A DNA stretch of 64,000 nucleotides from Candidatus Nanohalarchaeota archaeon (GTDB lineage Archaea; Nanohalarchaeota; Nanosalinia; Nanosalinales; Nanosalinaceae). Shown piece by piece: positions 40,361-49,351 of this stretch. The stretch is taken from assembly GCA_022729235.1 (NCBI GenBank), contig JALDAJ010000001.1:124001-188000 (forward strand), in the 5' to 3' direction. The notes beneath the pieces were generated by a model. That model saw only the letters and a program-made list of their open reading frames with translations. It did not search any database and was not told the DNA's origin. The position numbers and the translations under genes were made by a program. Position 1 is the stretch's first letter, and every line of letters begins with the position of its first letter.

Positions 40361-42025
40361 ATGACAGGACTAGGTGGACAACCCGTATTCATCATGTCGG
40401 AAGACGCACAACGACAAACTGGTGAAGACGCACAGGAAAACAATATCTCAGCATGTAAAACAGTAGCAAAAGCTGTTCGAACAACTCTAGGACCGAAAGG
40501 AATGGACAAGATGATGGTCGACTCCATCGGCGACATAGTCGTGACCAACGACGGAGTGACTATCCTGGAAGAGATGGACCTCGAACATCCAGCAGCGAAG
40601 ATGATGGTAGAGGTCGCGCAGACCCAGGAAGAAGAGGTCGGCGACGGGACAACGACCGCGGTCGTCCTCGCAGGAGAACTCCTGAAACAGGCGGAAGACC
40701 TGCTTGACCAGGAAATCCATCCAACAGTTATCACAAACGGATTCAGGCTCGCAAAGGACAGGGCTACTAACGTACTTGACGACCTTGCAGAAGAAGTCAC
40801 AATCAACGACCAGGAAACACTTGAAAAGGTAGCGATGACAGCGATGACAGGAAAATCCGCAGAGGCTGCAAGAGACTACCTCGCAGAAATCGCAGTTGAC
40901 GCAGTCCGATCTGTAGCAGAGGAAGACGGCAACGAATACGTGGTCGACCGCGACATGGTAAAGGTCGAAAAGAGTCAGGGAGCATCCGCAGAGGATACAG
41001 AACTTGTAAAAGGCGTAATCCTTGACAAGGAGAAAGTTCACAGCGGGATGCCTTCAAAGGTCGAAAACGCGAAAATCGCGGTACTTGACTCACCGATCGA
41101 AGTAAGGGAAACTGAGACCGACGCGGAGATCAACATCTCCGACCCATCGCAGATGAAGAACTTCGTCGAACAGGAGGAAGCACAGCTGAAAGAGATGGTC
41201 AACGCTATCGAAGAATCCGGCGCAAACGTCGTCTTCTGCCAGAAAGGAATCGATGACATCGCACAGCACTACCTCGCGAAGAGAGGCATCTTTGCGATCA
41301 GAAGAGTCTCCTCCAGCGACGTAGATAAACTTGCAAAGGCTACAGGAGCCAACATCGTAACCTCTGTAGACGACATAGACTCCAGCGATCTTGGAGAAGC
41401 AGGAGCTGTTGGACAGCGCAGAATCGGCGGAGACGCCATGACGTTCGTCCAGGACTGTCCAGAAGCCAAGAGCGTTTCAATCCTCATCAGAGGCGGAACA
41501 GAACACGTAGTAGATGAAATCGAGAGAGCGATGGAAGATGCGCTCGGAAGCGTATCAAGCGCACTAAGAAACGGTCAAATAGTTGGCGGAGGCGGAGCTA
41601 CAGAAGTAGAACTCGCCCGCGAACTCAGAAACCATGCAGACTCAGTAGGCGGAAGAGAACAGCTCGCGATTAACGCATTCGCAGACGCACTCGAAGTCAT
41701 CCCCCGGACTCTATCCGAAAACGCAGGTTTCGACCCTATCGACACCCTCGTCGAACTGAGAAATCAGCACGAGGACGGAGACCACTGGGCAGGAATCGAC
41801 GTAACCTCCGGCAAGAGCGAGGCGCTCTTCGAACAGGGAGTCGTCGAACCACGGCAGACCAAGACACAGGCAGTACAGTCCGCTAGCGAGGCGGCAGAGA
41901 TGGTTCTCAGAATCGACGACGTTATCGCTGCCTCAGGATTCGACAGCGACGGCGGAGACGCAGGCGGACCACCAGCCGGCGGCGGAATGCCCGGCGGAAT
42001 GGGCGGCATGGGAGGAATGATGTGA
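40361..42025 (+). CDS. Thermosome (group II chaperonin) subunit
   Basis: A 554-residue chaperonin subunit that folds proteins in an ATP-driven double ring. Motifs: [14 protein letters not shown] near the start, [21 protein letters not shown] (ATP site), and [10 protein letters not shown] near residue 407. The Gly-Met tail ([14 protein letters not shown]) is typical of archaeal and Hsp60-type tails. The ATG at 40361 fits the family start better than the ATG at 40394. It has its own promoter. Downstream is an unusual hairpin array, and a second M-G-G-M-M-stop coding piece at about 42077-42094 beyond the real stop. Confidence 0.96.
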
Positions 42026-42194
42026 GGTCGAGAGACCGAGCATCTTCCGACCTTGCAGAAGATCCCTGATCTTCGAATGGGCGGTATGATGTAGGACTCT
42101 CAGACAGAGTTTCATCCGCAGGAATCAGCGATTCCTGTTAAAAGCAGTCTTTACAGAAGACTGCGTCATACCTAAGCCGTTCCTAGAACGGCTT
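42026..42194. repeat. Array of six short hairpins after the thermosome gene
   Basis: Six inverted repeats lie in a row: GGTC/GACC (42026-42037), GAAGATC/GATCTTC (42058-42074), ACTCT/AGAGT (42096-42110), GGAATC/GATTCC (42121-42135), GCAGTCTT/AAGACTGC (42144-42164) and AAGCCGTTC/GAACGGCTT (42174-42194). Stems are perfect and 4-9 bp with 3-5 base loops. The second to sixth are strong. A T-rich tail follows. They could stabilise or end the transcript, or be remains of a mobile hairpin element; the sequence alone cannot decide. Confidence 0.7.
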
Positions 42195-42286: not shown

Positions 42287-43171
42287 ATGACATCTGAGAA
42301 TGGTTTCGAGAACGTAAGAAAGAAACTGGACGAAGAAGAGCTTGAAGGAGACTTAGAGGAAAGACTGGAAACTTTAATGGAATACCGTTCTCAGGCAAGA
42401 GAGGTCGCCTCAGAGAAGAAAAAGGAGATAGAACAAGAAAAAGAACAGATTGAAGATACCATCAACGCTCTTGCAAGGGAAACAGTCAGAGCTTACGATG
42501 GACCGCATATCTACGAACTTTCCGATCAGATAGTCAAGGTACTAGAAAACGTTGATGCCGATATTGCCTCACGAGGAAGCAGAACAATAGGAACGGAAAA
42601 GATGACTGACGACTTATCAGACCTAGGATTGCCCTTCCTAAACACCATGAACTATGAAGATCATCTTGGAAGAAAATCCAAAATGGAGACAATTGGAAAC
42701 GAATCAATCGCTGGAAGAGGCGTACTTGAGAAATCCAAAGAAGGACAGATAGTTAGTGCGGCTGTTCATGGAGACCATCTATTTTACAAAGCTGAGAACC
42801 CTCGTGCTGCAAATATGATCGGTATAGGAGGACATCACTTCCAGAAATCGAAGTCCCCAACTGCTATAAACGGCGTAACTTATGGAGAACATGCCTTCGA
42901 AAAAGCAGATAGTCCTTATCTCGAAAGCTGGCATCTAAGCGGACGTCACGCTCTAGCAAACTCAGAGAACCCTGTAATAGTAGATGCAACGATAGAAGGA
43001 AAACACGCTCTAAGAAATGCCAGATCACCTACATTGATTAACGTTGATGGGACCTATGACGCACCAGATAATAGTATAGTTTACGAGGAAGTTCCAGATG
43101 AGGTAATTGCTGAAATTGGACCAGAAGACGATATAGAAGAACTAGTTTCTGATGAATACAGAGTCACCTGA
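42287..43171 (+). CDS. Coiled-coil protein with GxH repeat solenoid, unknown function
   Basis: A 294-residue cytoplasmic-looking protein. Residues 1-70 form a charged coiled coil (many K/E/Q). From about 158 to 257 there are five tandem units of 19-21 residues with the pattern G-x-H-x-(F/L)-x-(K/N)-(A/S)-x-(S/N)-P followed by hydrophobic positions, for example GEHAFEKADSP, GRHALANSENP and GKHALRNARSP. Evenly spaced His and Pro suggest a beta-solenoid that could line up histidines for metal or ligand binding. An acidic tail ends the protein. I do not recognise the family. A TATA-like run about 20-30 bases before the ATG suggests leaderless expression. Confidence 0.65.
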   Translation: MTSENGFENVRKKLDEEELEGDLEERLETLMEYRSQAREVASEKKKEIEQEKEQIEDTINALARETVRAYDGPHIYELSDQIVKVLENVDADIASRGSRTIGTEKMTDDLSDLGLPFLNTMNYEDHLGRKSKMETIGNESIAGRGVLEKSKEGQIVSAAVHGDHLFYKAENPRAANMIGIGGHHFQKSKSPTAINGVTYGEHAFEKADSPYLESWHLSGRHALANSENPVIVDATIEGKHALRNARSPTLINVDGTYDAPDNSIVYEEVPDEVIAEIGPEDDIEELVSDEYRVT

Positions 43172-43199: not shown

Positions 43200-43832
43200 A
43201 TGCCCTAATCAAAGAACAAAAATAAACTCTCAGAGGACTTCTTCAATAGAAGAGTCGACAAGGTAGCGGAAGAACTTCCGGGCAAACTTCTAGTATACAA
43301 CAGCGATGGAGGAACTGCTGGCGGCATAATAGTCGAGACCGAGGCCTACCTAGGAAGGGAGGACCATGCATCACACCTTGTGAAGGCGGGAGAGAAACGC
43401 GAGAAAGTTTTCGATAAAGGCGCGGGAACGGTCTACATTTTCAAGATATACCACTGCAACCTGAACTTCATCACTGAACACGCCGGGATTGCGGAAGGCG
43501 TACTTATACGGGCGCTGGAGCCTACAAAAGGAATAGAGTTGATGAAGCAGCAGCGCGGAGTAGAAGAGAAAACAGAGCTAGCCTCGGGACCGGGAAGACT
43601 AACGGAGGCGCTTGGAATCACGAAAGAACAGGAGAACAGGAAACCGGTAGAGGACAGTAATGTCTCAATATACGATACAGGTCTGGAGCCAGAGATTGAG
43701 AAGACAGGTAGAATAGGTATCTCAGAGGCGAAGGACTGGCCGCTGCGGTTTACTGTAAAAGGGAGCGATTATGTTTCCACAGCTTCTAGTACGGAAATAT
43801 CAGAGGACTTTGACATTGGAAAATACTATTGA
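43200..43832 (+). CDS. 3-methyladenine DNA glycosylase (AAG/MPG family) with TAA as third codon
   Basis: AAG-type glycosylases remove alkylated purines from DNA. The frame is homologous from about 43230: SEDFFNRRV, PGKLLVY, IIVETEAYLG with the catalytic Glu and Tyr, then the conserved His of the EDHASH stretch, FKIYHCNLN and LIRALEPTKG, to the end. The frame has an ATG at 43200 followed by CCC and TAA, and no other ATG, GTG or TTG until 43380, which is too late because it would delete the ETEAY active-site segment. Either the gene is a fresh pseudogene, a non-AUG start is used, or the TAA is a sequencing error. All catalytic residues downstream are kept. Confidence 0.7.
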
Positions 43833-43885: not shown

Positions 43886-43941
43886 GTGGGTTATAAATAC
43901 GGGCGTCAGGAATTTTGACCTGTATAACCGGTGTCACAATC

Positions 43942-44601
43942 ATGTCGGAGGAAGAAGTTGATTTAGGTGAAGAAACAGACGACTACGAAGTCGTACCTGT
44001 AGGTCCTATCAGGCGACTTGAGAAAAGGATAGATAATATTGAAACAAAGGCTCAGGGTGGCGGTCCGAGTGATGATGTCGTACGTGACGTTCTCGACATC
44101 ATGAAATCTAACCAGAAAATCGTCAACGACATGACCCAGTCCACCCACGAACTGAAGAACGAAGTAGAAGACCTGACCCACAAGATGGACGAGGTAGTTG
44201 ACAACATGAACTCGTTCATGGACTTACTGAAGGACGCCTCGGAGATGGATATGGAAGGTGAAGTGGTCGGAGACATGCAGTCAAGAATAGCCGATGCTGT
44301 AGGGAACCGGATGGAAGATATAGTTACAGACATGCAGGAGTCCAACCGGCAGCTTGTTGACTCCCTGGAAGACATAAACCAGAGTATAAAGCGCTCATAC
44401 GCCGCCCAGAACAAAGATGAAATTCTCGAGAGAGGTGACCGAAGACAGAGGCGTTCAGGCAACCGTCAGAGTCAGCAGCAAAGAGGTGCAAATGACGGAG
44501 GTCAAGGGCAGAGACAGACCCAACAGCCTGAAGACGAACGAGGTCAGGAGCGGATGAGAAAACTTAGAGAACGTTTCAACGATATGAATGAAGAATCGTG
44601 A
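43942..44601 (+). CDS. Coiled-coil cytoplasmic protein heading the pilus locus
   Basis: A 219-residue protein with a long central amphipathic coiled coil and a Gln/Arg/Gly-rich tail (about 165-205). No membrane helix. It has the style of FlaC/FlaCE-like and other cytoplasmic accessory proteins that sit beside archaeal type IV machines, but I cannot assign it to that family. The ATG at 43942 follows a TATA box by about 40 bases. Its stop overlaps the GTG start of the first pilin, so it is part of the pilus operon. Confidence 0.6.
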   Translation: MSEEEVDLGEETDDYEVVPVGPIRRLEKRIDNIETKAQGGGPSDDVVRDVLDIMKSNQKIVNDMTQSTHELKNEVEDLTHKMDEVVDNMNSFMDLLKDASEMDMEGEVVGDMQSRIADAVGNRMEDIVTDMQESNRQLVDSLEDINQSIKRSYAAQNKDEILERGDRRQRRSGNRQSQQQRGANDGGQGQRQTQQPEDERGQERMRKLRERFNDMNEES

Positions 44602-45119
44602 GCCCGGTAAGCAAAGGCATAACACCTGTTGTCGCAACAGTTCTTCTTTTGACCATCAGTGTAGCCGCCACCGCGACAGCATATAACTTCATAATAGATA
44701 CACAGGAAAGAGTCGCCCAGGGCCTAGAGGAAGATCTCACCACCCAGGAGCTAAAACAGCAGTCAGATATCAGTATAGACTTCGCTTACAACAGCACTGG
44801 TAACTTCACATTGATCAACCTCAGGAACAGCGGTTCTATAAGCATACCTATCAACGAGAGCGGGATGAAACCGCTCCGGCTTTACGCGGACGGCAGACCA
44901 GTAGAATCAGAGGTAGGTGGGCCAGGAGAAGGATGGAAGTATGGCGACTCCGATGACCAGGCACCGGAAGAAAGAATCCTGATAGACCCTGACGAAACAC
45001 GGACTATAAACACCACCGTACAGTACCCCGTAAGAGGCGAAAGTAAGGCTTTCAGGTTCGTAGGACCTTATGACAGCGTGGCATCGAAAACCTGCTACAA
45101 CTCAGGATCCTCCTGTTAA
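44598..45119 (+). CDS. Archaeal type IV pilin (Pilin_N type)
   Basis: A 173-residue protein starting GTG, overlapping the previous stop (GTGA). SKGITPVVATVLLLTISVAA is the archaeal Pilin_N/DUF1628 pattern: K-G cleavage site, then a hydrophobic helix starting ITPVVA. The rest is beta-rich with N-x-S/T sites and two cysteines at the C-terminus. Likely a pilus subunit. Confidence 0.85.
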   Translation: MSPVSKGITPVVATVLLLTISVAATATAYNFIIDTQERVAQGLEEDLTTQELKQQSDISIDFAYNSTGNFTLINLRNSGSISIPINESGMKPLRLYADGRPVESEVGGPGEGWKYGDSDDQAPEERILIDPDETRTINTTVQYPVRGESKAFRFVGPYDSVASKTCYNSGSSC

Positions 45120-45164
45120 CTTATTTAAAGAAATAATAGGAAAACACTTCTAGAGACAGGTAAT

Positions 45165-45674
45165 ATGAAGAGAAAAGGTATCACCCCTGTAATCGCCATC
45201 GTACTTCTAATGCTGATAACAGTCGGAGCTGTAGGTGTCGTCTACACACAGTTCGAAGAGATAACAGACAGACAGGCCGACCTGGACTTTCTAGAAGACA
45301 TGGACATCAGAGTACAGAGTACGGTACTCGAAAGCGATGGGAACATGGAAATAACGCTTGAAAACAATGATAACGAACAGGTTAACCTTACAGAGACTGC
45401 AAGGCTCGAATACAGTGTAGAAGGTGAAGGCAGAGTTGGACCTACCACATTCGAAACAGTATCCGGATACGCGTATGAAGGTGGAGAATGTCTCGAACAA
45501 GGTAATGCTGATTATGGAGCATTTGAACCAGGAGATATAGTAACTTGCGATACCGGCGTTGAGATGGCTGATCCCGGGGACCCTATCACAGTTTACCTCA
45601 TAGAAACAGGTTCCGGAGATGTAGTGGATTCAACCACCTGTTCGCCTTCGACATCCAGCAGTTCAACCTGTTGA
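45165..45674 (+). CDS. Archaeal type IV pilin (Pilin_N type), own promoter
   Basis: A 169-residue protein with KRKGITPVIAIVLLMLITVGAV, the clearest archaeal pilin N-terminus in the window. The outer domain has three or four cysteines near its end and an acidic surface. A TATA-like CTTATTTAAAG lies about 35-45 bases upstream, so it can be expressed on its own, as expected for a main pilin. Confidence 0.87.
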   Translation: MKRKGITPVIAIVLLMLITVGAVGVVYTQFEEITDRQADLDFLEDMDIRVQSTVLESDGNMEITLENNDNEQVNLTETARLEYSVEGEGRVGPTTFETVSGYAYEGGECLEQGNADYGAFEPGDIVTCDTGVEMADPGDPITVYLIETGSGDVVDSTTCSPSTSSSSTC

Positions 45675-45724
45675 ATCTATTCTCTTCCACTTATTTTATA
45701 TTCGAGCAAGGAGCTTTTTGAGAT

Positions 45725-46369
45725 ATGAAAGGGCAGACCCAGGCGCTTACTGCTGTCATGATAACGACTGTGACTATAGGGGCGATAGCTACTGCCTATG
45801 TCTGGGGAACACCGCTTCTGGAGAAGCAGCAGAGCCAGGCACAGCTCCAGGAGGTTGAGAGATCGGTGATAAATCTTAAAGATGATATACTCTCCATCTC
45901 GAACAGCGGTGAAGGAACTACAACTGAAGTAGAGATAGATGTTGACAGTGGCAGGGTCGAAGTAAATCCTGAAGAAAACTATATCGACATCACCACTAAC
46001 ACTAGAAGACCGCCTTACCCGCCAGGACGGTGGACGCTGATCGAAGGTGAAAGACTGCAGAACCTTAGTATCGGTGAGGGAAGTTATGCTCTGAAAGAAT
46101 CCGACCTGCCCGGCGTGGTAGCAGTCAGGGCTGCATCAGGCACTGGTGATACAGTCATCACCTACCGTGTAGAGTTCAGGAACATGTATACTGAAACACC
46201 AGCCGGTCCTGAACTGGAGCTTGTTGATTTGCAGACAATAGGTGCGGAGACTGCTACAGACACAGTCAGGGTTCTTATATCCAATGATGGAGAAAGAAAG
46301 GACAGTATAGACGTGAACGGAGAAAACCTGCAGAGAACAAGTACGGAAATAGAGATAGATCTTAGGTGA
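45725..46369 (+). CDS. Pilin-like protein with class III signal, own promoter
   Basis: A 214-residue protein starting MKGQTQALTAVMITTVTIGAI: K-G site at the very N-terminus followed by a helix. The body is beta-rich. A TATA-like TTATTTTATATTC (about 45692-45704) and a CAAGGAGC site precede the ATG. It is followed by three further K-G-Q type genes in the locus. Confidence 0.72.
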   Translation: MKGQTQALTAVMITTVTIGAIATAYVWGTPLLEKQQSQAQLQEVERSVINLKDDILSISNSGEGTTTEVEIDVDSGRVEVNPEENYIDITTNTRRPPYPPGRWTLIEGERLQNLSIGEGSYALKESDLPGVVAVRAASGTGDTVITYRVEFRNMYTETPAGPELELVDLQTIGAETATDTVRVLISNDGERKDSIDVNGENLQRTSTEIEIDLR

Positions 46370-46375
46370 GCAAAT

Positions 46376-46771
46376 TTGAAAGGACAGTACCTTGCAGTGG
46401 AAAGCGTATTAACCCTGGGGATGGGTCTGGTAGTTGCTATCGGAACAGTATCCGCATTCTCAAGTTACAGGAGCGGAGTGCTGGATATGGCAGGAGAAAG
46501 ACAGGTAGACATCATAGAAGCGGAACTCGCCTCGGCGGTATACAGTCTAGAAGGCGTTGAATCAGGCGAACTGGAAGTTAAGCTCCCTGAAGACATCGGC
46601 GGGCAGGGATACCAGATAGTATTTGACGACGGTATAAAGATACTTGTGAACAACCAGGAATATGTTACGGAACTCGAACACTTCAGTGATAAGGAGTTCC
46701 AGGGTTCGGTTGAAGGCGGTCCAGTAAAAGTATTCAAAAGCGGAGACCAATTTACACTGGGTGCTGACTGA
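46376..46771 (+). CDS. Small pilin-like protein (TTG start)
   Basis: A 131-residue protein starting at TTG, just after an AGGTGAG ribosome-binding site: M-K-G-Q-Y-L-A-V-E-S. The K-G site and the Glu five residues into the mature helix are as in type IV pilins. It lies 6 bases after the previous gene and overlaps the ATPase start by one base. Confidence 0.75.
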   Translation: MKGQYLAVESVLTLGMGLVVAIGTVSAFSSYRSGVLDMAGERQVDIIEAELASAVYSLEGVESGELEVKLPEDIGGQGYQIVFDDGIKILVNNQEYVTELEHFSDKEFQGSVEGGPVKVFKSGDQFTLGAD

Positions 46772-48486
46772 TGAGCATGAACTTTGCCGGTCTTGTGAAA
46801 CGCCTGCAAAAGGCTAACCATCCTGAATTATACGAGAAGGATGAAGAGGAAACAGAAGAGATATCAGAGGAAGGAGTGAAGCTTCCGGCTCCAGGAAGTT
46901 TCCAGCCAGAGATGGTGACGGAAGAGGAGGAAGACGGGGAATCCATGACCGACGTAGATGTGTCATATCCCTTGATACCCAAGAACCCTGAATCAGGGGA
47001 TATAGTGTATGCGTGGGCTCACATAAGCTGGGATGAAAAAAACGGGGAACTACGATACAGGGTCATAGAACCCGAACTGAACCCTGAAACAGAGAGGATA
47101 CTTGAGAAGATAAAGAGTATACTGGAGAGAAGCTTCGATGTAAACTTCACCGAGCTCGAAACAGAGGAGGCTGACAGGTACCTGTCCGAGAAAATCGATA
47201 TGATTGTAGACAAATACAACATATCCCTTACAGATCAGCAGAGAGATGTAATCCGGTACTACTCTTACCGTGACTTCGCCGGACTGGGCAGGCTACAGCC
47301 ATTGATGAACGACAAGGAAGTGGAGGATATATCCTGCGACGGAAACGGCATACCGGTCTATGTCTACCACCGTAACCCACGATTCGGTTCTATCAAGACC
47401 AATGTAACCTGGGATGAAGAAGAGGTGCTCGACAGTTTCGTTATGAAACTGGCGCAGAGGTGCGGTCGTTCCATATCCGTATCAGAACCTCTGCTCGACG
47501 GTTCACTTCCCGATGGTTCACGTGTCCAGGCTACCCTCGCAACAGATATCGCCAGGAAAGGAAGCAACTTTACGATAAGACGTTTCACAGAGGATCCATT
47601 AACCCCTATACATATGATGGACTTCGAGACGGAGAACGCGCAGATGCTGAGCTATCTCTGGACTCTCGTAGAACACGGCAAGTCGATACTGGTAGCAGGA
47701 ACCACCGGAGCGGGTAAAACATCGCAGTTGAACGCACTATCACTTTTCATACGACCGGAGAAGAAAATCGTCTCCATCGAGGACACGCCGGAACTCCGGT
47801 TGCCGCACGACCACTGGGTGCCAGAGGTCGCAAGAAGCGGGTTCGGTTCCAGCGCGGAGGAAGGTGGAGAGGTATCAATGGACGACCTGCTGAAAGAGTC
47901 GCTGCGCCAGCGCCCGGAGTACATCATAGTCGGTGAGGTCAGGGGTGAAGAAGCATACATCCTGTTCCAGCAGATGGCAACTGGACACACAGGATTATCG
48001 ACAATCCACGCTGACTCCCTTGGCATGCTTATGGACCGCCTGACAACTAACCCTATCAACCTGTCACCAAGCCTTATAGAGACCCTGGACGCGGTAATGC
48101 TGATATCGAGAATCCGTCGTGGCGATACGTATGTCAGGCGTATCAAGGGCTTATACGAGGTTGAAGGATATGACAAGAGAAAAGGTATAGACGCAAACAA
48201 GGTCTTTGAATGGGACCCGAAAGAGGATACGTACGAAGTAGCTAACAATTCCATGCTCCTGAAAGAGATAGTCCATGAGACAGGGATGAGTGAAAAAGAA
48301 ATCCAGAAAGAACTTGTGAACCGTCAGCACGTACTTGAATGGATGCAGGAAGAGCAACACAAGCATTACAGGAAGGTCGGAGACATAATATCCCGCTACT
48401 ACTCGAACCCGCGGTCGGTACTGGAGAAAGTCGGGCAAAGCTTAAACTCGGAGCAAGACCAAATCAAAGTACAGGAGAATGCTTGA
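46771..48486 (+). CDS. Type IV pilus assembly ATPase (TadA/VirB11-like)
   Basis: A 571-residue secretion ATPase that powers pilus assembly from the cytoplasmic face. It has an acidic N-terminal region, then Walker A GTTGAGKT at 310-317, an IVSIEDTPELRLPH Asp box, IIVGEVRGEEAYILFQQMATGHTGLSTIHAD (Walker B and His box) and RRIKGLYEVEGYD. Typical of archaeal TadA/GspE2 proteins. It overlaps the following membrane-protein gene by 8 bases. Confidence 0.95.
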   Translation: MSMNFAGLVKRLQKANHPELYEKDEEETEEISEEGVKLPAPGSFQPEMVTEEEEDGESMTDVDVSYPLIPKNPESGDIVYAWAHISWDEKNGELRYRVIEPELNPETERILEKIKSILERSFDVNFTELETEEADRYLSEKIDMIVDKYNISLTDQQRDVIRYYSYRDFAGLGRLQPLMNDKEVEDISCDGNGIPVYVYHRNPRFGSIKTNVTWDEEEVLDSFVMKLAQRCGRSISVSEPLLDGSLPDGSRVQATLATDIARKGSNFTIRRFTEDPLTPIHMMDFETENAQMLSYLWTLVEHGKSILVAGTTGAGKTSQLNALSLFIRPEKKIVSIEDTPELRLPHDHWVPEVARSGFGSSAEEGGEVSMDDLLKESLRQRPEYIIVGEVRGEEAYILFQQMATGHTGLSTIHADSLGMLMDRLTTNPINLSPSLIETLDAVMLISRIRRGDTYVRRIKGLYEVEGYDKRKGIDANKVFEWDPKEDTYEVANNSMLLKEIVHETGMSEKEIQKELVNRQHVLEWMQEEQHKHYRKVGDIISRYYSNPRSVLEKVGQSLNSEQDQIKVQENA

Positions 48487-49351
48487 GGAGTATGCAGAGT
48501 TCTGCTACGATCAGATCGGTAGCTACGTGCTCGACTATCTTAACTACTTTGAAGACCTTAGACCGCAGATATCAAAGGCTAACATAGGTGTATCGCTGCC
48601 AGAGTACGTGGCGATGCTGGTATTCTCGACCATGGTAAGCACCGTCTTCAGTCTTTTCGTTATCGGCGGCATACTTACCCTGGGGTCCGGGATTACAGGA
48701 GGCATCATGGCAGTGGCGGTCTCACTTGTCATAGGAGTTGCGACCATGCTGATGTTCTACCTCTACCCCTCCCTGGTGATAAGGAACAGGGCGACCAAGA
48801 TACGCGATAAACTACCCTTTGCAACCATGTACATGTCAACTCTCGCAGGGACCGGGACCTCTCTATCAGAACTGTTCTCTATCCTGGCAGAACAGGAAGA
48901 ATACGGAGAAGTCGCCCAGGAGGCGGAAAAAATCAGTCGTGACATCGAAACATTCGGTATGGACATAAGCGAGGCTCTGAAAAACGCCGCTGATAGGACA
49001 CCGAGCAAGGAATTCAAGGAGCTCATGTGGGGGATGAACCACGTCATAACCTCCGGCGGATCGCTCAGAGAGTTCTTGCAGGAGCGCTCAAGGACACTGA
49101 TGAACGACTACCAGCGCAGGGTCGAAGAATTCGCCGAACAGCTGGGTCTCCTGGTAGAGATGTATATCACACTTGTTATCGTCGGATCCATCATCTTCAC
49201 CTCAATGAGCGCAGTGATGAGCTCGTTCACCACTTACCCTCCTGAATTCATAGTAGGTATCCAGATTCTGTCCATCTTCTTCGGACTACCTCTTATATCC
49301 GCGATGTTCATAATACTCGTAAAAGGCATGGCTCCCGGAGGCGTTAGATAG
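48479..49351 (+). CDS. Type II/IV secretion membrane protein (TadC/GspF-like), first copy
   Basis: A 290-residue polytopic protein with the T2SSF domain: LPFATMYMSTLAGTG, SELFSILAEQEEYGEVAQEA, and LREFLQERSRTLMNDYQRRVEEFAEQLGLLVEMY, with helices around it. It forms the membrane platform for the ATPase. It overlaps the ATPase gene by 8 bases. A second, different TadC-like gene follows after 20 bases; having two is usual in archaeal pilus loci. Confidence 0.92.
   Translation: MLEEYAEFCYDQIGSYVLDYLNYFEDLRPQISKANIGVSLPEYVAMLVFSTMVSTVFSLFVIGGILTLGSGITGGIMAVAVSLVIGVATMLMFYLYPSLVIRNRATKIRDKLPFATMYMSTLAGTGTSLSELFSILAEQEEYGEVAQEAEKISRDIETFGMDISEALKNAADRTPSKEFKELMWGMNHVITSGGSLREFLQERSRTLMNDYQRRVEEFAEQLGLLVEMYITLVIVGSIIFTSMSAVMSSFTTYPPEFIVGIQILSIFFGLPLISAMFIILVKGMAPGGVR

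What the first reader, a model, noticed from the sequence alone, without database searches (positions are those of the whole stretch)
42287..43171. Unrecognised protein with five G-x-H repeats and a coiled coil
Units of 19-21 residues with regularly spaced Gly, His and Pro form a clean solenoid pattern behind a coiled coil. I know no family with this pattern. Aligned histidines could bind metal, or the solenoid could be a scaffold.
Basis: seen in the sequence. Interest (0 to 1): 0.65.

Follow-up and report, generated by a model that had tools for sequence, protein, structure and literature searches.

The report
Divergent DUF3737-like beta-helix protein
A small salt-loving archaeon encodes a protein whose seven 19-residue repeats very probably wind into a right-handed beta-helix distantly related to the uncharacterised family DUF3737; its eye-catching histidines are real but are not kept in its best-matching relative.

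Summary
The ORF at 42287-43171 (294 aa) has a perfect 19-residue, gap-free repeat: seven units (residues 124-256), five of them consecutive G-x-H units, behind a long charged helical region. The repeat can be placed. A nanohaloarchaeal relative (P0002, 28% identity over 137 ungapped residues, eight exact 19-aa rungs) scores above the Pfam cut-off for DUF3737 (PF12541). The window protein itself scores below it (13.1 against 23.9 bits). Profile-profile comparison with 14 true DUF3737 proteins aligns 131 columns with one inserted residue, far above shuffles that keep the 19-residue period. AlphaFold2 predicts a beta-solenoid (pLDDT about 75-92). Foldseek's best matches are mostly pentapeptide-repeat and pectinase-type right-handed helices, none significant. 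The histidines sit at repeat position 3, a variable polar position: N,N,S,K,E,N,N,S in P0002; K,E,Y,Y,D,Y,Q in DUF3737. Only one short, weaker relative (P0003) shares two. The family's constant features are Gly at 1, Leu/Phe at 5, Ser/Ala at 8 and aliphatics at 13 and 18. Most likely it is a cytoplasmic, helix-tethered beta-helix scaffold or binding protein. A lineage-specific metal-binding histidine edge is possible but unsupported. Three of 28 genomes of the phylum carry a detectable copy.

The parts
42287..43171 (+). ORF, 294 aa: N-terminal helical region, seven-rung beta-helix, acidic C-terminal tail
   Evidence: one copy in the genome
42296..42571 (+). N-terminal charged helical region (residues 4-95), possible coiled coil
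   Evidence: AlphaFold2 helices 7-15, 18-70, 74-95 at low to medium confidence; heptad period not significant
42656..43054 (+). Seven exact 19-residue rungs (residues 124-256) of a predicted parallel beta-solenoid
42770..43054 (+). Five consecutive G-x-H rungs (residues 162-256): His164, 183, 202, 221, 240 at rung position 3, Pro at position 11
   Evidence: His codons mixed CAT/CAC and rung DNA only 35-51% identical, so not a recent tandem duplication
43055..43168 (+). Acidic C-terminal tail (residues 257-294), low model confidence after residue 270

Best explanation
The ORF encodes a cytoplasmic, non-enzymatic beta-helix protein of a divergent DUF3737-like branch. Shown by sequence: seven 19-residue rungs homologous to the DUF3737 repeat. 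Predicted: the rungs stack as a parallel, probably right-handed beta-solenoid with a Ser/Ala stack (position 8) and Leu/Phe and Ile/Val/Leu stacks (positions 5, 13, 18) inside, and polar, variable residues including the histidines at position 3 on one edge. Inferred: the N-terminal helices oligomerise or tether the protein, and the flat solenoid faces serve as a scaffold or binding surface for another protein. The histidine edge is a lineage-specific surface decoration, not the defining or catalytic feature.
For: Homology: BLASTP with P0002 E 2e-15, 137 residues without a gap; P0002 against PF12541 38.9 bits, cut-off 23.9; the two-sequence profile A3 finds genuine DUF3737 proteins in methanogens. 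hhalign with 14 DUF3737 proteins scores 52.2 over 131 columns, against a maximum of 25.3 in 200 shuffles that keep the 19-residue period; P0001 alone scores 33.2 against a maximum of 23.9. Fold: two AlphaFold2 models agree on stacked strands, pLDDT about 75-92; the best Foldseek matches are mostly pentapeptide-repeat and pectinase/GH-type helices. Histidines not family features. No catalytic family above cut-off among Pfam or NCBIfam hits and none convincing in PHROGs. Inspection of the N-terminus shows no hydrophobic signal or membrane segment.
Against: The direct PF12541 score of P0001 is below the Pfam cut-off (13.1 against 23.9 bits). No Foldseek match reaches E 0.001, partly because the models are built from one or two sequences. 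Handedness and inward/outward facing of residues were not measured, since no coordinates were available. No gene neighbourhood is shared between P0001 and P0002, so the scaffold role has no contextual support. DUF3737 itself has no known function.
Confidence: 0.6

Rival explanations
1. A bactofilin-like cytoskeletal protein: a beta-helix that polymerises end to end into filaments, with the N-terminal segment tethering it.
For: Beta-solenoid of uniform rungs with no obvious capping domain and helical or flexible flanks; bactofilins are polymer-forming cytoskeletal proteins (eLife RP100749, PMC12448750, abstract seen).
Against: No bactofilin Pfam hit at E up to 10; the sequence relation is to DUF3737. 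The N-terminal region is a long charged helix rather than a short membrane peptide.
Confidence: 0.15
2. The solenoid binds metal: His164, 183, 202, 221 and 240 stack about one rung apart along one edge and coordinate Zn, Cu or Ni ions pairwise.
For: His in six of seven rungs at the same position although the rungs are otherwise strongly diverged (mean BLOSUM score between rungs 3-7 outside positions 1, 3, 11 only 5.3 against 74-86 self, DNA 35-51% identical) and use mixed His codons, so His has been kept or gained repeatedly. The short relative P0003 from the same taxonomic family has His in two of three rungs.
Against: The orthologous rungs of P0002 have N,S,K,E instead; DUF3737 has K,E,Y,Y,D,Y,Q. 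The position tolerates Lys and Glu, so it is a variable polar position. No second ligand column (Cys, Asp, Glu) is aligned with it.
Confidence: 0.1
3. A carbohydrate-active or other enzyme of the pectate-lyase-like beta-helix type.
For: Weak Foldseek matches to pectin methylesterase, alginate lyase, DFA-IIIase and GH110 beta-helices.
Against: Matches not significant. Only seven short rungs without long loops. No acidic column is shared with P0002. No signal peptide on inspection.
Confidence: 0.07

Closest known systems
DUF3737 (Pfam PF12541)
   Same: 19-residue rung with the same pattern (Gly/Ser at 1, Phe/Leu/Gly at 5, Ser/Ala/Cys at 8, Ile/Leu/Val at 13 and 18); 131 columns aligned with one inserted residue. 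The relative P0002 is above the Pfam cut-off.
   Different: Below the gathering score itself; lacks the N-terminal GERALF...GESALKES signature and the aromatic positions 6-7 (W/Y/F) of DUF3737; has an N-terminal helical region and a His column instead.
Pentapeptide-repeat proteins (QnrB1, MfpA, AlbG)
   Same: Right-handed quadrilateral beta-helix; among the best Foldseek matches.
   Different: Rung is 20 residues made of four pentapeptides; here exactly 19 with no five-residue sub-period, and no Pfam pentapeptide hit.
Bactofilins
   Same: Beta-solenoid core with flexible ends.
   Different: No sequence match; not shown to polymerise.

Membership tests
DUF3737 (PF12541) | Profile score above Pfam's gathering cut-off of 23.9 bits | tested here: not met
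   P0001 13.1 bits, E 0.057; its relative P0002 38.9 bits
DUF3737 (PF12541) | 19-residue rungs with the family's pattern | tested here: met
   hhalign E 1.9e-7, 131 columns, score 52.2 against a maximum of 25.3 in period-keeping shuffles; table
DUF3737 (PF12541) | N-terminal GERALF...GESALKES signature and full length of about 275 aligned positions | tested here: not met
   Best stretch covers only profile positions 123-218; the signature is absent on reading the translation next to the DUF3737 proteins
Pentapeptide repeat | A(D/N)LXX sub-period of five | tested here: not met
   Lag 5 autocorrelation -0.74 against 0.39 at lag 19; no Pfam hit
Bactofilin | Bactofilin profile match | tested here: not met
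   No hit among Pfam matches to E 10
Metal-binding histidine solenoid | Histidine column kept among relatives | tested here: not met
   none of eight P0002 rungs and none of seven DUF3737 rungs has it; two of three in the short relative P0003
Metal-binding histidine solenoid | Bound metal | not testable with these tools
   Needs purified protein

The most novel reading that the evidence does not exclude
A DUF3737-like beta-helix in one nanohaloarchaeal lineage has acquired a five-rung histidine ladder that binds a linear array of metal ions (or buffers or senses pH) at the solenoid edge.
Probability: 0.08. Interest if true: 0.5.

Novelty: new variant of a known kind. Interest (0 to 1): 0.22.

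Why it matters
It links an orphan nanohaloarchaeal protein to DUF3737, a family spread over methanogens, Bacillota, Bacteroidota and spirochaetes with no known function. It also shows that the family's repeat unit is an exact 19-residue beta-helix rung over the aligned part. If the histidine edge did bind metal, it would be a simple natural example of a metal array on a beta-solenoid.

Tried and rejected
Ebp2, DUF3375, tRNA deacylase, LB_289 and phage hits: all below cut-off or weak, mostly coiled-coil chance matches. Low-scoring hits in G001, G017 (L004), G012 and G005 start in or match mainly the charged N-terminal region, not the repeat. Locus L036 is a DNA tandem repeat with stop codons that mimics a 19-residue period, rejected; it shows that E-values near 1e-6 for periodic profiles need checking, which is why period-keeping permutations were used. 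Recent tandem duplication of the G-x-H rungs: rejected, rung DNA is only 35-51% identical. Relatives in phages, plasmids and viral contigs: none. Literature on DUF3737: none in the library. Shared operon context: none seen.

Full report
Observation. The ORF at 42287-43171 (+) encodes 294 residues. The C-terminal half has a perfect period of 19: autocorrelation 0.39 at lag 19 and 0.31 at lag 38, against a maximum of -0.14 over 2000 shuffles. Seven gap-free rungs run from residue 124 to 256: EDHLGRKSKMETIGNESIA, GRGVLEKSKEGQIVSAAVH, GDHLFYKAENPRAANMIGI, GGHHFQKSKSPTAINGVTY, GEHAFEKADSPYLESWHLS, GRHALANSENPVIVDATIE, GKHALRNARSPTLINVDGT. The N-terminal 95 residues are predicted helical and charged. 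The helical period is clear, but the heptad period of a coiled coil is not significant.

Relatives. The window lies in a 1.03 Mb single-contig genome. Its phylum group is nanohaloarchaeal: a relative's contig is titled Candidatus Nanoanaerosalina archaeon. Of 28 genomes in the phylum, three have the repeat: this one; G026 (P0002, BLASTP E 2e-15, 28% over 137 ungapped residues, eight exact 19-residue rungs); and G017 (P0003, three rungs, weak alone: BLASTP E 7e-4; profile E 7.6e-6; its 9.9e-17 is inflated because its own sequence was in the profile). There was no match in phages, plasmids or viral contigs.

Family placement. P0001 hits PF12541 (DUF3737) only weakly (13.1 bits, E 0.057), but P0002 is clearly above the cut-off (38.9 against 23.9 bits). 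The P0001+P0002 profile independently retrieves full-length DUF3737 proteins of methanogens (L010 and others). DUF3737 proteins from five bacterial plasmids and nine archaeal genomes were aligned. hhalign against the P0001/P0002 solenoid gave probability 93.7, E 1.9e-7 and 131 columns with one inserted residue. Because periodic sequences can match each other for trivial reasons, each rung was permuted identically, which keeps the 19-residue period and the composition: 200 such shuffles scored at most 25.3 against 52.2 for the real pair. For P0001 alone the figures were 23.9 against 33.2, and the reversed pair scored 13.6. The position table shows what is shared: Gly at 1, Leu/Phe at 5, Ser/Ala/Cys at 8, aliphatic at 13 and 18, Ser/Asn/Asp at 15-16.

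Fold. AlphaFold2 from the sequence alone gave strands repeating every 19 residues (pLDDT about 79-87 over 181-270). With P0002 added (its DNA held as L019) most ten-residue blocks from residue 141 on reached about 75-92. Foldseek against the PDB found mostly pentapeptide-repeat and pectinase/GH-type right-handed helices at the top, none at E 0.001 or better; the viral library gave the same kinds. A right-handed parallel beta-solenoid is the reasonable reading; handedness was not measured.

The histidines. Position 3 is His in six of seven P0001 rungs. It is N,N,S,K,E,N,N,S in P0002, H,H,N in P0003, and K,E,Y,Y,D,Y,Q in DUF3737. Rung correspondence between P0001 and P0002 is best with rung i matching rung i+1 (mean score 16.0 against 7-13 for other offsets; strongest for the last two rungs, 38 and 22). 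So His replaced, or was replaced by, other residues in rungs that already existed. Within P0001 the rungs are old (DNA 35-51% identical) and the His codons mixed, so the ladder is not a recent duplication and may be under some selection in this lineage. That is the only argument left for a function of the histidines. Metal binding is neither shown nor excluded.

Context. Upstream is the thermosome gene (40361-42025, recognised from its translation), with a terminator-like hairpin at 42174-42194 (one found, 1.7 expected by chance). Downstream is a methylpurine-DNA glycosylase, then pilin-like proteins and a PilB3-like ATPase. P0002 lies beside an MFS transporter-like gene and a small unknown protein; nothing is shared. 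A TATA-like ACTTAAG lies about 26 bases before the ATG, fitting an own, perhaps leaderless, transcript (inference).

Mechanism. Most likely a cytoplasmic beta-helix held together or tethered by its N-terminal helices and acting as a scaffold or binding platform. The repeat homology is shown, the fold is predicted, and the role is inferred. A polymerising bactofilin-like protein, a metal-binding edge and a pectinase-like enzyme are the rivals, in that order of likelihood.

Verdict. But it belongs, as a divergent variant, to a known uncharacterised beta-helix family, and its histidines are not a family feature. Interest is low to moderate.

Noticed in passing
43200-43832 +: Methylpurine-DNA glycosylase gene (PF02245, 167.9 bits) whose frame has ATG CCC then an in-frame TAA at 43206 and no ATG/GTG/TTG before the conserved domain: a possible pseudogene, sequencing error or non-standard start.
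   Followed up: partly
43915-49351 +: Type IV pilus-like cluster: coiled-coil protein, pilin-like proteins with N-terminal hydrophobic helices, PilB3-like ATPase and T2SSF membrane protein.
   Followed up: partly
L036 1201-2100: DNA tandem repeat (unit about 19 codons) with stop codons in an archaeal genome of the phylum of G309 that mimics the 19-residue protein period.
   Followed up: yes
L009 1135-2196 (P0003): Nanohaloarchaeal protein with only three such rungs inside a longer, otherwise unrelated protein; shares HLGRKS with rung 1 of the window protein.
   Followed up: partly
L032 and L033: In two bacteria (Parabacteroides distasonis, Lachnospira eligens) the DUF3737 gene lies directly upstream of a MalY/PatB family gene, a possible functional clue to DUF3737.
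   Followed up: no
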